A DNA stretch of 64,000 nucleotides from Granulosicoccus antarcticus IMCC3135. Its GTDB lineage: Bacteria; Pseudomonadota; Gammaproteobacteria; Granulosicoccales; Granulosicoccaceae. The translations under genes and the position numbers were made by a program. Shown here piece by piece: positions 23,554 to 29,514 of the stretch. Position 1 is the first letter of the stretch. Each line of letters opens with the position of its first letter. The DNA is taken from NCBI RefSeq assembly GCF_002215215.1, contig NZ_CP018632.1, forward strand, positions 7,498,501 to 7,562,500, read 5' to 3'. The notes below the pieces were generated by a model, which saw nothing but the letters and a program-made list of their open reading frames with translations, searched no databases and had not been told where the DNA came from.

Positions 23554-24255
23554 CTAAGAAACGACCAGCAAATCATCACTTTCAAACAATTCCATCAAAT
23601 AGGTACCAGTCGAGCAATAATGCGCTAACAATCGCTCTGAGGCTAACTCGGCATCCCCTGCAATAGCCGCCTCCATGATGCCAAGATGCTCGTCCGTGAC
23701 GTGCCTGTTGTGATAGTTGAGGGAGCGCAAGGCCAACAAGCGGTATCTGATGTTCAGATCGTACAACTGTGAACAGAACTCGAACATGATCGGTGCCTGG
23801 CAATTAGCCAATAGTGTCATGTGGAAGCTTTTGTGATGCTCTTCGAATACGTCAATTTCTTCGACAGGTTTACGCGTCATCCGATGGTGGCTCAGAACGA
23901 CACTCTCCTCCCATTTTTCATCCATATTGGCAATACTGTCGCGTAAAGCCATATCCTCCAAGGTACAACGCAACTTCAGGATCTCTTCGAAGTTTGCACG
24001 ACTGACGGGGGCTGCTCGAAAGCCTCGTTGATCGCTGCGTTGAACCAGATGACCTGATGACAACAGGCTGAGAGCCTCACGCACTGGCGACGCTCCCGTA
24101 TTGAGACGCTTGCACAATCCGTCGATTTTCAGCTTCTCACCAGGCTTGATTTCACCCTGAATGATCATACGCCGCAACGCCTTACAGGTTCTCTGGGTTG
24201 CGGACCCCTCGGAACTGTCGGAACCGTTGGGTTGTTGTATTGTTATTGAGTTCAT
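23554..24255 (-). CDS. GntR-family regulator with FCD domain
   Basis: This is a 233-residue FadR-type transcription factor. The N-terminal winged helix (TCKALRRMIIQGEIKPGEKLKIDGLCKRLNTGASPVREAL) has the typical GntR recognition region, and the rest is an all-helical FCD ligand domain with the metal-binding type histidines (EEHHKSFHMTLLA and the late H-x-x-I pattern). The regulator is divergent from the four-gene COG3014/LpoB-like operon; the ligand is unknown. A 12-base palindrome AATATCGATATT sits nine bases upstream of its start and could be an autoregulatory site. The stop codon touches the 60-bp palindrome. Confidence 0.88.
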   Translation of the reverse strand: MNSITIQQPNGSDSSEGSATQRTCKALRRMIIQGEIKPGEKLKIDGLCKRLNTGASPVREALSLLSSGHLVQRSDQRGFRAAPVSRANFEEILKLRCTLEDMALRDSIANMDEKWEESVVLSHHRMTRKPVEEIDVFEEHHKSFHMTLLANCQAPIMFEFCSQLYDLNIRYRLLALRSLNYHNRHVTDEHLGIMEAAIAGDAELASERLLAHYCSTGTYLMELFESDDLLVVS

Positions 24256-24605
24256 TGGGTGAGAATATCGATATTTTACGGATTAATCAATGACTCGATT
24301 AAACCGCTATCTGACATAACAGTCAATCCTGCAACCTCATAAGCCGATTGGCTCCACTTCTCATCGAGAGATTACAGGTGACAACAAGTTTTTCGCGATT
24401 AAAAATCGCTGTAAGACTTGCGATTGAAAAAAATTGTAAAGATCTATAGGCCTCTGTCGTTACAAATCGGGTACACGGAGGTTACAACTCTGGATCGGGC
24501 ATGGAATATTTCGGCATCGCCGACCCGACTATCTGTGAGGCACAGAGTCCAGAGTAGTAAAGACTTCCGTGGCATTCGATTTATAAGCAACGGATATATG
24601 CACCA
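24256..24605. promoter_or_regulatory. 350-bp intergenic region between gntR and the LpoB-like operon
   Basis: No convincing gene is visible. The region is more AT-rich than its surroundings and must carry two divergent promoters. Dyads seen are AATATCGATATT at 24264-24275, next to gntR, and GCGATT-AAA-AATCGC at 24395-24409 in the middle. Either could bind the GntR-family protein; this is inference only. Confidence 0.4.
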
Positions 24606-26165
24606 ATGACTATCAGACCTCCTCACTCTGTCAAAAATATTCCACGCCGTACAGTTCTAGCATCAATGGTGCTCGCATCACTACTGGGAAGTGCCTGCTC
24701 TACAACAGGCGGCGGTAACAGTAACGATCCAATAGCCAGCTACAACAGCGCCTTTTCACGGGGTGATTACGCCACCGCTATCACAGCCATTCCTGCCCCT
24801 GCAGCGAATGACGAATCAAAAGAAACATCACCAGAACGCGATGTTTTTCGACTGCTGCATGTTGCAGAAGCCCAACGCCTTTCTGGTGATTATCGCGGTG
24901 CTATCGCCAGCTATGAACAAGCTGAAGCTGGTCTCAAAAAACTGGATCTAGAAAGCGGACTGGAGAAGGGCTTGGAATCTGCGGCCAGCTTTGTTGGCCC
25001 AGCCTCGGCACAGGATTACGAACCGTATGAAGCGGAAAAAATCCTTATCAATACCTACAAAGCACTGGCGTTTCTCAGCTTGGGCGAGGCCAACGATGCA
25101 CGTGTAGAATTCAATCGTGTCAACTACCGATCACAGCGTGCAATGCAATCATTCGAGAGTGAGATTGCAAGTGCCAACTCTAAAAAATTGAAACTGGGCG
25201 ATAAGGAATTTTCCGCCAAGGATCTGATTCCGGAGGGAATGACCAGTCAGTTCGAGAACAAAACAATCGAAGGTGACTCATTTGCAGGCTATGAAGGGTT
25301 CATGCTCCCGGCCTCCACTTACCTTCACGGCATCTACAACCTTGCATCTGCCGATCGTGATCTGGATGCTGCCTCCCATTCGCTGCGCCAGCTGAACGAC
25401 ATGTATCCAGAGATATCATTGTTCAAGAATGAACTTTCCTCTGCCGAATCTGGCTCTCCTCTGGCGAGCCAGCTAGTTTGGGTTGTATACGAAAATGGCA
25501 CTGGCCCGAGCCTTGTAGAACAACGGGCGGATGTGGACGCAACACTCGATATCTCCAGTATGAAGTTCGGCGTCCGTGAAGACAGCGTTGATCCGACAGA
25601 ATGGCGGAACTCGATTCAGGCTCAGAACATGACGCCCTATGTCATATCACTTGCAATTCCGACGGCCACCGAATCAAAACCTGTCGAACCACCTTTCAAA
25701 ATATCCACTCACGATGCTCACGATGTCTCGCTGACTACCTTTTCCAGTATGACTTCAGTATCAAATGCGGAGATAGAACGACGTAAACCCGCCATGCTGA
25801 CAAAGGCGTTTGGATCGTCTGCGGTCAAGGTCGCAGCGCAAGCTCTGGCAGCTAACGCAGCTGAGAAGAAGGGATCCGGATTCGGCGCTTTCGCCGCTCG
25901 TGGAATGGGAATCGCCACGGCCAAGGCAACCAGCGCCGACACGCGTAGCTGGTCCTCTATCCCTGCACACTGGGAGGTTGCCCGATTCGAACGTCCGGCC
26001 GATGGCGTCATGAAAGTGGAAACAGGCAGTGTCAATGGTGAGCTCAGCTTGCCAAGCTGGTCAAGAGTACTCGTCTATGTAAAACGTCCGAGCGCGGATA
26101 CGCCACTGCGCGTCTCGTTGATCGATCTGAACGGCCAGGAGCCGGCGATCGAAACCACGTTCTAA
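24606..26165 (+). CDS. COG3014-type lipoprotein
   Basis: This is a 519-residue predicted lipoprotein. The signal ends in LLGSAC (lipobox, Cys at about residue 31) after a twin-arginine-like NIPRRT that is probably just the basic n-region. The N-terminal half has tetratricopeptide-like helices (ASYNSAFSRGDYATAITAI, LSGDYRGAIASYEQAEAGL, INTYKALAFLSLGEANDARVEFNRV). A C-terminal beta-rich region includes LVWVVYENGTGPSLVEQRAD and ends with a strand carrying SWSRVLVYVKRPS. This matches the uncharacterised COG3014 lipoproteins that often precede LpoB-like and CsgG-like genes. It is the first gene of a four-gene run. Confidence 0.75.
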   Translation: MTIRPPHSVKNIPRRTVLASMVLASLLGSACSTTGGGNSNDPIASYNSAFSRGDYATAITAIPAPAANDESKETSPERDVFRLLHVAEAQRLSGDYRGAIASYEQAEAGLKKLDLESGLEKGLESAASFVGPASAQDYEPYEAEKILINTYKALAFLSLGEANDARVEFNRVNYRSQRAMQSFESEIASANSKKLKLGDKEFSAKDLIPEGMTSQFENKTIEGDSFAGYEGFMLPASTYLHGIYNLASADRDLDAASHSLRQLNDMYPEISLFKNELSSAESGSPLASQLVWVVYENGTGPSLVEQRADVDATLDISSMKFGVREDSVDPTEWRNSIQAQNMTPYVISLAIPTATESKPVEPPFKISTHDAHDVSLTTFSSMTSVSNAEIERRKPAMLTKAFGSSAVKVAAQALAANAAEKKGSGFGAFAARGMGIATAKATSADTRSWSSIPAHWEVARFERPADGVMKVETGSVNGELSLPSWSRVLVYVKRPSADTPLRVSLIDLNGQEPAIETTF

Positions 26166-26183
26166 CGACAAAACGATAGCGAG

Positions 26184-26211
26184 GTCGGCAAGCTCAGAAG
26201 AGTTTGCCGAC
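26184..26211. promoter_or_regulatory. Hairpin between the COG3014-type and LpoB-like genes
   Basis: GTCGGCAAGCTC and GAGTTTGCCGAC form a 12-base-pair stem (one G-T pair) with an AGAA loop, located 18 bases after the first gene's stop and 29 bases before the next start. There is no T run. It could stabilise the upstream message or attenuate read-through within the operon. Confidence 0.55.
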
Positions 26212-26240
26212 TGCTCCCCCCAACCAAGGATTCCAAATCT

Positions 26241-26849
26241 ATGAAGACACGAACACTCGTGGCGGGCTTTGTTATTAGCGCACTGTTGTCAGCCTGTGCC
26301 TCTCAACCCTCCTATGTTGATACCGACAATGACCGTGGCCCAATCACCATGTCTCTGGACTATCGCGATTTCAACAAGGCTGCAGATGCAGCGATCGAAG
26401 AGCTTCTGGCAAGCCCAAACCTCGTAAATCCGGCCGGAGGCCGCTATATCCTGGCGATTGGCAGGATTTCCAATCGGACGATGCAACACATCGACACCGA
26501 CAGCGTCGTGAAGAAAATTCGGGTAGCTCTGCTTAATTCAGGGCGTGTCGTTACAACGACGGCAATCGCTCATGGCGGACCAGAAGATGACATGGTCATG
26601 CAGGTTCGTAGCTTGCGTACCTCAACCGAGTTTGACCAGAGCAGCGTCGCCGAACAAGGAACACTCAGAGCTCCTGATCTCAGTTTGACCGGAAAATTCA
26701 TTCAACGTACGGTACGCGCAGGCAAGAATCACCAACAAGTCGAGTATCGATTTCAGATCAGCGTGACAGATCTTCGTAGCGGAGTTGCAATTTTCGAACA
26801 TGAAAAGGAAATTGTGAAACGCGGCACCAACAAGACGGTCGTCTGGTGA
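26241..26849 (+). CDS. LpoB-like lipoprotein (penicillin-binding-protein activator family)
   Basis: This is a 202-residue lipoprotein with lipobox LLSAC at residues 15-19. The mature domain has MSLDYRDFNKAADAAIEELLASPNL, then ILAIGRISNRTMQHIDTDSVVKKIRVALLNSGRV, the characteristic LpoB core, and LSLTGKFIQRTVRAGKNHQQVEYRFQISVTDL towards the end. LpoB in enterobacteria crosses from the outer membrane to activate PBP1b. Here it is part of an operon with CsgG/FlgT-type and COG3014 partners, so a distinct role is possible. It overlaps the next gene by four bases (GTGA). Confidence 0.8.
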   Translation: MKTRTLVAGFVISALLSACASQPSYVDTDNDRGPITMSLDYRDFNKAADAAIEELLASPNLVNPAGGRYILAIGRISNRTMQHIDTDSVVKKIRVALLNSGRVVTTTAIAHGGPEDDMVMQVRSLRTSTEFDQSSVAEQGTLRAPDLSLTGKFIQRTVRAGKNHQQVEYRFQISVTDLRSGVAIFEHEKEIVKRGTNKTVVW

Positions 26850-28219
26850 GCCGCCCGGTAACGGTCGCTGCTACTCGGCCAATATCACTGATCGCGTTCG
26901 CAGCCGGCGCGCTGTTCATGTCGAGTATGGTCAGCGCCCAGGATCGCACACCATCCCCGTTCGTCTCAATGGATGAAATCGGTTCGGCAGATGAGCAGAT
27001 CGAAGTATTCCTCTCTGAACGCGGCTGGGTACGTGGCGAGTGTAGCTGCAACCCTGCAGGCGGGACCCTGGTGGTTGCCGAGGCGGATATTGCCGTATCC
27101 GCAGACCAGATCCGTTTCAGCGAAGCACGCCTTATGGCAACCGAAGAAGCCTATCTTACAGCCGTCGGTATATTCGCCCGGCAAGATTCAGTCGAAATCG
27201 TCAAGGAATCAACAAAGACTTTCATGAAAGACGATCTGCCACAGGAAATCGAACAAGAAGACAACCTCGATGCCCTGCTCTCTGCGGTTTCCACCCGACT
27301 GGCAACGGCCTCTGTTGCACAGCTTGATAAGCTCATTTCGAGCCTGGGTGGAGATACTTCAAACTTGCCTCAGTTAAGTCTGTCCGCAAAACGAAAACGT
27401 CTCCATGACGAAATGCTGGTCGAGTCACTGTCACGTGCTTCAGCTCGCATGGCAGGCGTTGGCATCTTCGGCGTGATAGAGCAGACCGGGGGCGACGGCG
27501 TACTGTCCAACGGTAGCGTCAATGTAGTTGTTGTCCGTGCCCCCGGATTCGAGGATCTGGGTCGCCAGCTCAGAAGCGGAGAAAGCAATGCTGCATTGGG
27601 TATGCCGGTTGATTCGATTAGAAAGAAACTTGCAGGGCATATGGCTGCTCGCACACCCATGCTCGGATATTTCGGCGTGCAACCCGTCAAGGATGCAGAA
27701 GGACGCTATGGTCTGATTTCATTCGGCATGGGTGCGCCGCAGCTGGTTCGCAGTATGGATCAGGATGATATGCGTGCCGAATACGACATGGCTAGAATGA
27801 GTGCTGAATTGATGGCTGACGGCTGGCTTGCGCAGTTTGCCAGCCTGGCCGTTACCGCCGACCGATCTGAAGTCCGTCGAACACTAAAGCAGAAAATTGA
27901 TGTGATGGAGGGTGACGGATTCATACACAAAGCGAGCAGTACGGATGTCGGCAAGTTGCTGTCTGATGTCACTCGCTCCATATCGAAAGCGAATATCCGC
28001 GGAATACAGACAATCGGTTCCTGGTCGGCAGATGCCCCTGACACAGGCCATCCCTATCTTGGAGTCGTGAAGTACTGGTCTCCAGCGATGGCAGCAAGTG
28101 CGGAAAGCCTCAGCGATGCCTATCGAAACGGCACTCGCCCGACAGTACCCGCTGCGGCCAAACCTGCTGCTGCCCCAGCAAAGAGTAATCGCAGTACGGG
28201 GGCATTCGGAGAATGGTAG
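26846..28219 (+). CDS. Uncharacterised secreted protein (perhaps DUF6844) of the LpoB-like operon
   Basis: This is a 457-residue protein starting at GTG, overlapping the LpoB-like stop. An N-terminal hydrophobic segment (ISLIAFAAGALFMSSMVSA) with cleavage after VSA indicates export. The mature part contains a C-S-C pair at about residue 56, long helical stretches, and a repeated theme of paired short strands (GVIEQTGGDGVLSNGSVNVVVV and LISFGMGAPQLV). The C-terminus is an Ala-Pro-rich tail. I believe it corresponds to the DUF6844 family found beside COG3014 and LpoB genes, but this rests on recall of the neighbourhood. The function is unknown. It overlaps the next gene by seven bases. Confidence 0.6.
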   Translation: MSRPVTVAATRPISLIAFAAGALFMSSMVSAQDRTPSPFVSMDEIGSADEQIEVFLSERGWVRGECSCNPAGGTLVVAEADIAVSADQIRFSEARLMATEEAYLTAVGIFARQDSVEIVKESTKTFMKDDLPQEIEQEDNLDALLSAVSTRLATASVAQLDKLISSLGGDTSNLPQLSLSAKRKRLHDEMLVESLSRASARMAGVGIFGVIEQTGGDGVLSNGSVNVVVVRAPGFEDLGRQLRSGESNAALGMPVDSIRKKLAGHMAARTPMLGYFGVQPVKDAEGRYGLISFGMGAPQLVRSMDQDDMRAEYDMARMSAELMADGWLAQFASLAVTADRSEVRRTLKQKIDVMEGDGFIHKASSTDVGKLLSDVTRSISKANIRGIQTIGSWSADAPDTGHPYLGVVKYWSPAMAASAESLSDAYRNGTRPTVPAAAKPAAAPAKSNRSTGAFGEW

Positions 28220-29514
28220 GTCTGACGAAAGATCAACACAATGGCGCGTGCCGTATCCTGCTTGTTGCCTTTATCCTGATAGTGATGTGGTTGGTGAGTT
28301 CAACGGTCAATGCTGCGGCCAGTGTCCGCTCGGTAAGGGCCGTAGCAAGCGGGTCTGATCGGGACAGTGCAATCTCTAATGCGCTGGCAGATGCACTACG
28401 CCAGGTCCACGGGGGAGAGATCAGCATGACGCGAGAAACCCAGCGAACTTTGCATAGGCTCTCGACAAACGGCAGCTCCAGCATACGCTCAGAGCAACGC
28501 GGCAGTAGCGTGACACGCACATCCAGTGAAGGCCTGATCAATGGCTATCGAATCGTGTCTCTCACGCCGCTCGGCTATGGCGGATTTGATGCAACATTAG
28601 ACGTTGATATACCCGTGTACCAAACGCAGGCCGTTCACTCAGCGCGACGCAAGATTGCAGTTTATCCCGTCGAAACCGTTGCTACTCGGTATCGATTCGG
28701 CGGCCAGACCCTGAATGCTGTGGACGTATCACAACGTCTGACACAGTCGTTGGTTGCAGCCACCGTCCAGTCTGGCCGCTTCTCGGTACTGGATCGCGAC
28801 ATGCGCTCGGGGATCACCCGGGAACAGCATTTTATCGGCGGTGATGATGTTCCGTTGGCCGAGAAAATGGCACTAGGACGTGCATTGGGCGCGGAGCTGC
28901 TACTGGTCAGCCGCCTGCGTCGACTCGATCTGGAAACGGTTCAGCATCGAAATCCACTAAGCGGCGAAGTCAGTCAATCAAGCCAGGGAGCCGCAGTCAT
29001 CGAAGCACGTGTTGTCATGCCGTCGACCGGTCAGCTCATGTGGGCGAAAACACTGGAACTGGGCGCAAGCGAGATCGATGTACAAAGCTCGGAACAGGCC
29101 ATGCTTGCATCCGTATCGCGAGAATTGGTTTCCAGTGTTCTTGAAGGAATCTACCCCTTGCGGGTCGTCGATGGACTTGGCGACAGTGCGGTGATCAACC
29201 AGGGAGGGGAATTGGTGCAGCTTGGTCAACGTTACGATGTGTTCTCCATCGGCCGTCGCTATGCTGACCCGTATTCGGGCGAGAGTCTCGGTGCACGCGA
29301 AAAGCGAGTCGCATCGGTCGAAGTGACCTTTGTCGGAGCCAAGACGTCACAGGTCCGCGTACTGGATGGTACAGTAACGGGCGACGGCCACGTTCTACGT
29401 CGAGTGCCGGGACTGGCGGCAAGTCGTCCCTACCAGCCATCGGCGCAGAAAAAAACGTCGACCCCCGCCCGTAGCCATCGTCGTGGCTTTTGTCTGCCAG
29501 GTGATGCCTGTTGA
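28213..29514 (+). CDS. Periplasmic FlgT-like protein with CsgG-type middle domain
   Basis: This is a 433-residue exported protein. The signal peptide has a strong hydrophobic core (ILLVAFILIVMWLVSSTVNA) and no lipobox cysteine, so it is periplasmic or secreted. The mature layout is an N-terminal domain with GSDRDSAISNALADALRQV and GYRIVSL, as in FlgT; a middle CsgG-type domain (KIAVYPVETV, RLTQSLVAATVQSGRFSVLDRD, ALGAELLLVSRLRRL); and a C-terminal domain with VINQGGELVQLGQRYDVF. FlgT builds the H-ring of sheathed sodium-driven flagella, yet no flagellar gene is near. It closes the four-gene operon and is followed by a terminator-like hairpin. Confidence 0.72.
   Translation: MVGLTKDQHNGACRILLVAFILIVMWLVSSTVNAAASVRSVRAVASGSDRDSAISNALADALRQVHGGEISMTRETQRTLHRLSTNGSSSIRSEQRGSSVTRTSSEGLINGYRIVSLTPLGYGGFDATLDVDIPVYQTQAVHSARRKIAVYPVETVATRYRFGGQTLNAVDVSQRLTQSLVAATVQSGRFSVLDRDMRSGITREQHFIGGDDVPLAEKMALGRALGAELLLVSRLRRLDLETVQHRNPLSGEVSQSSQGAAVIEARVVMPSTGQLMWAKTLELGASEIDVQSSEQAMLASVSRELVSSVLEGIYPLRVVDGLGDSAVINQGGELVQLGQRYDVFSIGRRYADPYSGESLGAREKRVASVEVTFVGAKTSQVRVLDGTVTGDGHVLRRVPGLAASRPYQPSAQKKTSTPARSHRRGFCLPGDAC

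What the first reader, a model, noticed from the sequence alone, without database searches (positions are those of the whole stretch)
24256..29514. Four-gene export operon: COG3014 lipoprotein, LpoB-like lipoprotein, unknown secreted protein and FlgT/CsgG-like protein, without flagella or curli
All four products carry export signals and the last three genes overlap by 4 and 7 bases. The final gene has the three-part FlgT layout with a CsgG-type middle domain but lacks a lipobox, and no flagellar, curli or PBP1b gene is near. An LpoB-like activator beside a FlgT/CsgG-like protein suggests an uncharacterised envelope complex, perhaps one linking peptidoglycan synthesis to an outer-membrane structure. 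A GntR-family regulator is divergent. Signals, overlaps and domain order are seen directly; the complex is inference.
Basis: partly seen in the sequence, partly recalled or inferred. Interest (0 to 1): 0.65.

Follow-up and report, generated by a model that had tools for sequence, protein, structure and literature searches.

The report
Flagellar-ring-like outer-membrane operon without flagella
Four neighbouring genes make envelope proteins that resemble the parts of a ring found around some bacterial flagella, yet the same genes occur in bacteria that seem to have no flagella, so they probably build a different, still undescribed structure at the outer membrane.

Summary
Four co-directional genes (A 24606-26165, B 26241-26849, C 26846-28219, D 28213-29514) encode proteins with export signals; B/C overlap by 4 bases, C/D by 7. 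B passes the LpoB cut-offs. C is a homologue of a crystallised Francisella protein of unknown function (4QVR). D has the FlgT layout: LPP20-like, CsgG/FlgT-middle and FlgT-C/TsaP-like domains.

The cluster is old. Of 80 named relatives of B, 79 have A and 79 a YcfL-like gene beside it; of 65 with enough downstream sequence, 24 have C+D, 9 D only, 32 neither. The window lacks YcfL.

A PBP1b-activator role is doubtful: B's tether is 21 residues (20-23 in 80 of 80 relatives; 58 in E. coli LpoB), and UB2H-type PBP1b was found in 11 of 36 carrier genomes, not in this one. A flagellar role is doubtful: 9 of 29 C-carriers show no FlgH.

Best reading (about 0.5, inference): an outer-membrane-tethered periplasmic ring or scaffold, built like the Vibrio H-ring but serving something else. 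New detail: C looks like a tandem repeat and ends in an aromatic residue in 40 of 40 complete homologues. The Francisella operon is in print as hypothetical proteins.

The parts
   Evidence: aligned with homologues beside LpoB genes in other genomes; relatives beside B in 79 of 80 loci; only sub-threshold TPR matches in Pfam; no PDB relative at E below 0.1
26241..26849 (+). gene B: 202-aa LpoB-family lipoprotein with a short tether (21 residues from lipobox Cys to the DYRD motif) and C-terminal Trp
26846..28219 (+). gene C: 457-aa exported protein, homologue of FTT_1539c (PDB 4QVR), DUF6844-related
27023..27595 (+). C, first half (residues 60-250), beta-alpha-insert-beta-beta-alpha; Lpp20-like arrangement
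   Evidence: model; VIA match to H. pylori Lpp20 5ok8 Z 5.9, 99 aligned, (weak); no profile match to LPP20
27653..28141 (+). C, second half (residues 270-432), repeat of the first; LPP20-like by profile comparison
   Evidence: hhalign C2 vs LPP20 set E 5.7e-6 prob 85%, C1 vs C2 E 6.3e-5 prob 65%
28142..28216 (+). C, low-confidence tail ending in ...GAFGEW (aromatic last residue)
28213..29514 (+). gene D: 433-aa exported protein with three-domain FlgT-type layout, no lipobox
28309..28623 (+). D N-domain (residues 33-137), LPP20/FlgT_N-like
   Evidence: PF02169 E 0.007 (below cut-off), 7 of 33 members at E 0.1 or better; hhalign to LPP20 set E 3.7e-5 prob 71%
28630..29157 (+). D middle domain (residues 140-315), CsgG/FlgT_M fold
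   Evidence: PF03783 above cut-off; CsgG in 32 of 33, FlgT_M in 18 of 33 members at E 0.1 or better
29152..29412 (+). D C-domain (residues 314-400), FlgT_C/TsaP-C-like small barrel
   Evidence: 6ve2_O E 7.8e-10 and 3jc8_Ta (TsaP) E 4.4e-4 with profile A6
29491..29511 (+). D C-terminal CLPGDAC (LPxD motif)
   Evidence: L, P and D invariant in 33 of 33 of A6; only 2 of 10 held-out D proteins keep it
23554..24255 (-). divergent GntR/FCD regulator; link to the operon not tested

Best explanation
A-B-C-D is a compact version of an old, uncharacterised envelope gene cluster. B (LpoB-fold lipoprotein on a short tether) sits at the inner face of the outer membrane; C (probably two tandem LPP20-like domains) and D (FlgT-type: LPP20-like, CsgG/FlgT_M, FlgT_C/TsaP-C) are periplasmic and form with it an oligomeric ring or scaffold that works like the Vibrio flagellar H-ring (outer-membrane lipoproteins FlgO and FlgP plus periplasmic FlgT). 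It is not flagellar: it would brace or let pass another envelope-spanning structure, or stabilise the outer membrane. A (TPR-like lipoprotein) would be an assembly or anchoring factor. Shown: gene order, family matches, predicted folds, short tether, presence in FlgH-negative genomes, scarcity of UB2H. Inferred: periplasmic/outer-membrane location in this organism, ring formation, the partner structure, the role of A.
For: Predicted D matches FlgT best by Foldseek: 8z5n chain 0 (LPHT ring) E 4.6e-17 and 3w1e FlgT E 2.7e-16, 394 and 406 columns. Second look: 3w1e Z 12.8 over model 39-314, 8z5n Z 12.7 over 145-399. TsaP C-domain by sequence profile, E 7.8e-10. D's N-domain and C's second half resemble LPP20, while D's other two domains do not; Lpp20 is the second match of the C model, Z 5.9. 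FlgO, FlgP and FlgT make the H-ring, FlgO and FlgP being outer-membrane lipoproteins (passages of PMC6375700, and PMC7990780). Of 65 relatives of B with at least 3200 bases downstream, 24 have C and all 24 have D too. Of 13 further C loci, 9 have D next to C and 1 has one gene between. B's tether is 21 residues, 20-23 in 80 of 80 relatives, which would hold the domain near the membrane. No FlgH match in 9 of 29 C-carrying genomes, including four that are 99-100% complete. Homologues of C and D are listed among Francisella outer-membrane-vesicle proteins or antigens (passages of PMC10963506, and PMC6795709).
Against: No experiment on any member shows a ring. C's first half gives no profile match to LPP20 (E 0.14, prob 0.4%), and a Z of 5.9 is in the range the tool calls possibly a common arrangement. 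B matches LpoB but not FlgO by sequence. Window D itself does not hit FlgT_M at E up to 1. In the second look FlgT is tied with many CsgG-fold proteins (top CT253, Z 13.1), and D's C-domain also matches ATPase beta-barrels (Z about 9.9). The D model has pTM 0.59. 23 of 36 carriers have FlgH, so a flagellar link in some of them is not excluded. 32 of 65 relatives of B lack C and D, so B works without them there. Francisella-like D proteins lack the N-domain.
Confidence: 0.5

Rival explanations
1. Peptidoglycan-synthase activator complex: B activates a class A PBP as E. coli LpoB does, and C/D couple this to an outer-membrane structure.
For: B is above both LpoB cut-offs. E. coli lpoB also sits next to ycfL, as in 79 of 80 relatives here. 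11 of 36 carriers have a UB2H match in a 768-799-aa frame.
Against: Published activation needs a long disordered linker (145 A) and the UB2H domain of PBP1B (passages of PMC6220978, and PMC7267771). B has a 21-residue tether (E. coli 58 by the same kind of count). This genome has no UB2H above cut-off, only a partial match in a frame of 1153-1172 aa that looks like Mfd. 25 of 36 carriers have no UB2H match in a PBP1b-sized frame. A UB2H-free activation of another PBP is not excluded.
Confidence: 0.12
2. CsgG-like export device: D (perhaps with B) forms an outer-membrane pore or ring and C is its exported client, recognised through its aromatic C-terminus.
For: CsgG match above cut-off. C and D are nearly always neighbours. 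C ends in an aromatic residue in 40 of 40 complete homologues. The Francisella C homologue is an antigen seen with sera (passages of PMC4207810, and PMC10963506).
Against: D lacks a lipobox, which CsgG uses (recalled), and no CsgE/CsgF-like gene lies in the four-gene unit (by its domain matches). FlgT chains rank above CsgG in Foldseek. Francisella antigens in the same lists include cytoplasmic proteins (GroL, AceF), so reactivity does not show secretion.
Confidence: 0.15
3. Non-ring envelope-maintenance lipoprotein cluster (outer-membrane stability or vesicle formation) in which FlgT/LpoB folds are only shared domains without higher-order assembly.
For: The A-YcfL-B core is found without C/D in 32 of 65 relatives. 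FTT_1538c is listed in an outer-membrane-vesicle proteome (passages of PMC6795709). A transposon mutant of FTT1538c grew normally in vitro (passages of PMC4696196).
Against: D carries all three FlgT-type domains, and the relatives of its middle domain with solved structures (CsgG, PelC dodecamer, FlgT in the LPHT ring) are mostly ring formers by their entry titles.
Confidence: 0.18
4. Flagellar accessory: D is this organism's FlgT and the operon serves its flagellum.
For: FlgT fold; the genome has FlgH, and 23 of 36 carriers do.
Against: No FlgH in 9 of 29 C-carriers. No flagellar neighbours were seen in this window around the operon. Another FlgT-like protein, with FlgT_M and FlgT_C above cut-off, exists elsewhere in the genome. 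FlgH-positive genomes of the same genus were not checked for a substitute.
Confidence: 0.05

Closest known systems
Francisella operon FTT1537c-FTT1540c (hypothetical proteins; FTT_1539c = PDB 4QVR)
   Same: C is homologous to FTT_1539c (E 2.1e-60 with profile A5; Foldseek E 5.8e-13; Z 21.5 over 295 residues). Three unnamed Francisella-like genomes have B, C, D, A in one run. That FTT1540c-1537c are B, C, D, A in this order is my inference.
   Different: A lies last there, not first; the D proteins of those three genomes lack the LPP20-like N-domain; no YcfL-like gene.
Vibrio flagellar H-ring (FlgO, FlgP, FlgT)
   Same: A TolB/CsgG-type lipoprotein, an LPP20-type protein and a FlgT-fold protein; FlgT is the best fold match of D.
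   Different: Not beside flagellar genes; present in FlgH-negative genomes; B is LpoB, not FlgO, by sequence; C has two LPP20-like units and no lipobox.
E. coli ycfL-lpoB locus
   Same: YcfL-LpoB adjacency is the same as in 79 of 80 relatives.
   Different: E. coli LpoB has a proline-rich linker of about 58 residues and lacks the C-terminal ...W extension; no A, C or D there. The window lacks YcfL, and DUF1425 is not found in this genome.
TsaP (type IV pilus secretin-associated protein)
   Same: C-terminal domain.
   Different: TsaP has LysM, not LPP20 and CsgG-type domains (entry names; rest recalled).
CsgG (curli)
   Same: Middle domain of D.
   Different: D is not a lipoprotein, has extra N- and C-domains and no csgEF neighbours.

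Membership tests
LpoB (PBP1b activator) | sequence family above curated cut-offs | tested here: met
   PF13036 123.5 vs 22.3 bits; TIGR02722 127.9 vs 110.55
LpoB (PBP1b activator) | long disordered linker that spans the periplasm | tested here: not met
   21 residues from lipobox Cys to DYRD, 20-23 in 80 of 80 relatives; 58 in E. coli to the aligned YDW
LpoB (PBP1b activator) | UB2H-bearing PBP1b in the same genome | tested here: not met
   own genome: only a sub-cut-off partial match in a Mfd-like frame; E. coli control rings
LpoB (PBP1b activator) | stimulation of a PBP | not testable with these tools
   needs biochemistry
FlgT | three-domain FlgT fold | tested here: met
   Foldseek 8z5n_0 and 3w1e over 394-406 columns; N+M domains with 3w1e, M+C with 8z5n; model pTM 0.59
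FlgT | Pfam FlgT_M match of the window protein | tested here: not met
   not listed at E up to 1; 18 of 33 members of A6 match at E 0.1 or better
FlgT | flagellar role or co-occurrence with flagella | tested here: not met
   no FlgH in 9 of 29 C-carriers and in 13 of 36 genomes in all; draft genomes of unknown completeness among them
CsgG | CsgG domain above cut-off | tested here: met
   32.1 vs 20.8 bits
CsgG | lipobox | tested here: not met
   no lipobox in D's N-terminus by eye
CsgG | transmembrane beta-hairpins | tested here: inconclusive
   long strands 229-246 and 253-269 in the model, not tested for membrane character
DUF6844 / 4QVR family | full-length homology | tested here: met
   profile E 2.1e-60 over positions 10-456; fold Z 21.5
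DUF6844 / 4QVR family | Pfam DUF6844 above cut-off for the window protein | tested here: not met
   17.6 vs 27 bits; 23 of 26 members of A5 match at E 0.1 or better, best 7.4e-31
LPP20/FlgP (for C) | LPP20 domain | tested here: inconclusive
   second half E 5.7e-6, first half E 0.14; Lpp20 5ok8 Z 5.9; no Pfam LPP20 hit in window C at E up to 1
H-ring (FlgO/FlgP/FlgT) | FlgO component | tested here: not met
   B matches only LpoB at E up to 1
H-ring (FlgO/FlgP/FlgT) | ring assembly | not testable with these tools
   needs electron microscopy

The most novel reading that the evidence does not exclude
A non-flagellar H-ring: B, C and D build an outer-membrane ring of the FlgO/FlgP/FlgT kind that surrounds or lets pass another envelope structure, in bacteria of several phyla, including ones without detectable flagellar genes. 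It would be either an ancestor or an offshoot of the flagellar ring, with C's aromatic C-terminus as the plug-in signal for the partner.
Probability: 0.3. Interest if true: 0.78.

Novelty: new variant of a known kind. Interest (0 to 1): 0.5.

Why it matters
It would give a function to a widespread cluster of hypothetical envelope proteins, including a crystal structure that has stood without function (4QVR, released 2014) and a Francisella locus reported to affect virulence. It would also show that many proteins annotated 'penicillin-binding protein activator LpoB' cannot work by the known UB2H mechanism, and that the flagellar H-ring has non-flagellar relatives, which bears on how such outer-membrane rings arose.

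Tried and rejected
PBP1b activation: UB2H search of the own genome gave one sub-cut-off match; the frame looks like transcription-repair factor Mfd (name recalled, not scanned). In one search, 17 of 36 genomes have some UB2H match at E 0.001 or better and 12 of 36 pass the cut-off; I count as PBP1b only the 11 genomes with a match in a 768-799-aa frame, since the others lie in frames of 700-1225 aa and are mostly short partial matches, mostly of Mfd size.

Flagellar role: FlgH search in 36 carriers: 23 of 36 positive. The 36 include 7 D-without-C genomes (L056, L057, L059, L061, L069, L095, L101), of which the four Chlorobium-type ones are FlgH-negative; without these, 9 of 29. G032 (one of the 9) is 84% complete, and genomes reached through named loci have no completeness figure.

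Recent transfer: GC of the four genes (0.52-0.57) does not stand out from the window (0.541). C is absent from the 26 other sampled genomes of the genus and present in 1 of 9 further genomes of the family, so it is patchy; many of these genomes are incomplete. No tree was built. A, B and D were not searched in those relatives.

Breadth of C: 7 of 398 phylum genomes and, with the Pfam model, 7 of 369 class genomes. In one search at most 4 first-look candidates per genome were scored for many genomes, so this is a lower bound.

Internal and LPP20 comparisons: the first LPP20 set was made from wrongly oriented loci and is discarded; the corrected set is. Negative there: C first half vs LPP20.

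D's C-terminal LPxD is invariant in the 33 aligned members but kept in only 2 of 10 held-out D proteins, so I do not treat it as a family signature. Terminator-like hairpin at 29473-29488: terminator-like sites in the stretch are not above shuffles (4 found, 5.9 expected); promoter-like sites 7 found, 4.5 expected.

A against PDB: nothing below E 0.1. B against PDB by phmmer: only LpoB 2mii at E 0.27. Paper searches: DUF6844 and COG3014, 0 papers; LpoB/CsgG/FlgT, YcfL+LpoB, TsaP+FlgT, DUF1425/COG3417/COG3018/FlgT-like/LpoB-like: the listings show no paper whose title or abstract start describes this cluster; the papers found were not read. Subscription journals are mostly not held.

Selection in the neighbourhood counts: one search found 200 relatives of B and kept the best 80, rich in Marinobacter, so frequencies are not those of nature. 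L041 (complete C, cut D) and L073 (cut C) were left out of alignment A5; L041's C end was checked, L073's true end is not visible.
Full report
What is there. Four co-directional ORFs, 24606-29514, with a divergent GntR/FCD gene at 23554-24255. The last three overlap by 4 and 7 bases. The genome is a single 7.78-Mb contig. B is an LpoB-family lipoprotein above two curated cut-offs. C has only a sub-cut-off DUF6844 match (17.6 vs 27 bits). D has CsgG above cut-off and a weak LPP20 match. A has no family match above cut-off.

Relatives. The single-protein and the profile search for C found it in this genome and one other of 57 relatives, so it is patchy in its own genus. In 369 class genomes the Pfam model found 7. 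One of these, G107, has A-B-C-D in the same order as the window. Three small AT-rich genomes have B-C-D-A. G235 and G260 have C-D, and G352 has C, one gene, D. A scan of named genomes with the LpoB pair (window and G107) found 200 relatives and kept 80, in Marinobacter, Zhongshania, Chlorobium, Sulfurimonas, Desulfobacterota-type, Planctomycetota-type and other records. With profiles of A, YcfL-like, B, C and D, 79 of 80 have A and 79 of 80 a YcfL-like ORF; among 65 with at least 3200 bases after B, 24 have C and D, 9 D only, 32 neither, and none C only. One YcfL-like ORF was confirmed as DUF1425 above cut-off. In the window no gene lies between A and B (75 bases), and the genome has no DUF1425 match. 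So there is a core (A, YcfL-like, B), related to the E. coli ycfL-lpoB pair, and an optional pair C-D. In 13 further C loci, D lies next to C in 9, one gene away in 1 (G352), and is absent or only weakly matched in 3 (G032, G641, G448).

C. Profile A5 (26 sequences, 25 of them from named loci) finds PDB 4QVR, Francisella FTT_1539c, at E 2.1e-60. The AlphaFold model (pLDDT 75.9, pTM 0.76) matches 4QVR at Foldseek E 5.8e-13 and Z 21.5, rmsd 4.9 A, 295 residues. The model shows the same element order twice (strand, long helix, insert, two strands, helix). The two halves align by profile over 58 columns (E 6.3e-5, prob 65%); the second half aligns to an LPP20 set at E 5.7e-6 (prob 85%), the first does not (E 0.14); control domains of D do not (E 0.08, 0.39). 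The second-best fold match of the first half is H. pylori Lpp20, Z 5.9 over 99 residues, just above ribosomal proteins at Z 5. I read C as a tandem LPP20-like protein, with moderate confidence. After a low-confidence tail all complete C proteins end in an aromatic residue: 27 of 27 (window, the other 25 of A5, and L041) in W or F, and 13 of 13 held-out loci in W, F or Y. The tails themselves hardly align, so this end looks like a docking signal (inference). Six of 26 C proteins carry a GYF_2 domain.

D. Profile A6 (33 sequences) finds the C-domain of TsaP-type chains (6ve2_O E 7.8e-10; 3jc8_Ta E 4.4e-4) and CsgG (E 1.4e-4) in the PDB. Of 33 members, 32 match CsgG, 25 LpoB, 18 FlgT_M, 7 LPP20 and 2 FlgO at E 0.1 or better. 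The model (pLDDT 77.1, pTM 0.59) matches the FlgT chain of the LPHT ring (8z5n, E 4.6e-17) and the FlgT crystal structure (3w1e, E 2.7e-16) ahead of CsgG (about 1e-6), TolB, PelC and LpoB (7.7e-5). In the second look FlgT is tied with CT253 and CsgG-fold chains, and the high rmsd (10-12 A) shows that the domains are arranged differently. That 8z5n chain 0 is FlgT is my reading of the match; the listing gives only 'LPHT ring'.

B is LpoB by family but not by mechanism. Published LpoB reaches PBP1B's UB2H domain by a 145 A disordered sequence (passages, PMC6220978; PMC7267771). E. coli LpoB has 58 residues between its lipobox cysteine and the aligned YDW. The window has 21 and 80 of 80 relatives 20-23. 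UB2H is missing above cut-off in this genome. In 36 carriers it occurs in a PBP1b-sized frame in 11. B ends in W in the window and in 79 of 79 complete relatives (the 80th is cut).

Not flagellar. FlgH occurs in 23 of 36 carriers, including this genome. It is missing in 13, of which 9 carry C: three Francisella-like genomes and G260 (99-100% complete), G032 (84%), and the genomes of L030, L075, L090 and L093. A separate FlgT-like lipoprotein with FlgT_M and FlgT_C above cut-off is encoded elsewhere in this genome.

How it most likely works. The H-ring of Vibrio consists of the outer-membrane lipoproteins FlgO and FlgP and periplasmic FlgT; it serves outer-membrane penetration and anchoring of the flagellum (passages, PMC6375700; PMC7990780). 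B, C and D supply the same three kinds of fold: a CsgG/TolB-type lipoprotein on a short tether, an LPP20-type protein, and a FlgT-type protein. The best-supported inference is an outer-membrane-tethered ring or scaffold of that kind that serves a non-flagellar structure. Which structure is unknown; the TsaP-like domain makes a secretin-type or pilus system a candidate, but this was not tested. Confidence 0.5.

Known work. Francisella FTT1537c-1540c is described as a four-gene operon; a transposon mutant in FTT1538c grew normally and had a raised LD50 whose confidence interval overlaps the wild type, with polar effects not excluded (passages, PMC4696196). FTT1539 is a recurrent antigen (passages, PMC4207810; PMC10963506), and FTT_1538c is listed in vesicles (passages, PMC6795709). 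That FTT1538c is D follows from gene order and is my inference. My searches for DUF6844, COG3014 and the combined names gave no listing that describes the cluster.

Verdict. Real, conserved, uncharacterised. New variant of a known kind; interest 0.5, more if the ring is shown.

Noticed in passing
L023:7576-9559 (G000:C1, about 375576-377558): The same genome has a second LpoB-family lipoprotein (PF13036 E 7.9e-33) followed directly by an A-like lipoprotein, without C or D.
   Followed up: partly
L022:2393-7301 (G032): In a family relative C sits between a caspase-like exported protein (recalled signature, not scanned) and a protein with CsgG and peptidoglycan-binding (PF01471 E 2e-16) domains.
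   Followed up: partly
A5 members from Sulfurimonas, Nitratiruptor and Desulfo-type records: 6 of 26 C proteins carry a GYF_2 domain (best E 2.3e-18); which members was not listed, but longer C proteins (523-550 aa) with a shared xxHxMxNNQQxGP-like start occur in those records.
   Followed up: no
L110:7303-8274 (G000:C1, near 6725692): A 323-aa FlgT-like lipoprotein (FlgT_M and FlgT_C above cut-off) lies beside a gene that looks like a fimbrial chaperone (recalled, not scanned) and shows no flagellar neighbour by eye.
   Followed up: partly
window 29491-29511 and A6 members: D proteins of the window and Marinobacter end in C-LP-x-D-x-C, most other aligned ones in LPFD; the paired cysteines are peculiar to one clade.
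   Followed up: partly
window 26836-26846 and relatives: B ends in W in 79 of 79 complete relatives, and C ends in an aromatic residue too, so two proteins of one operon share an aromatic terminus.
   Followed up: partly
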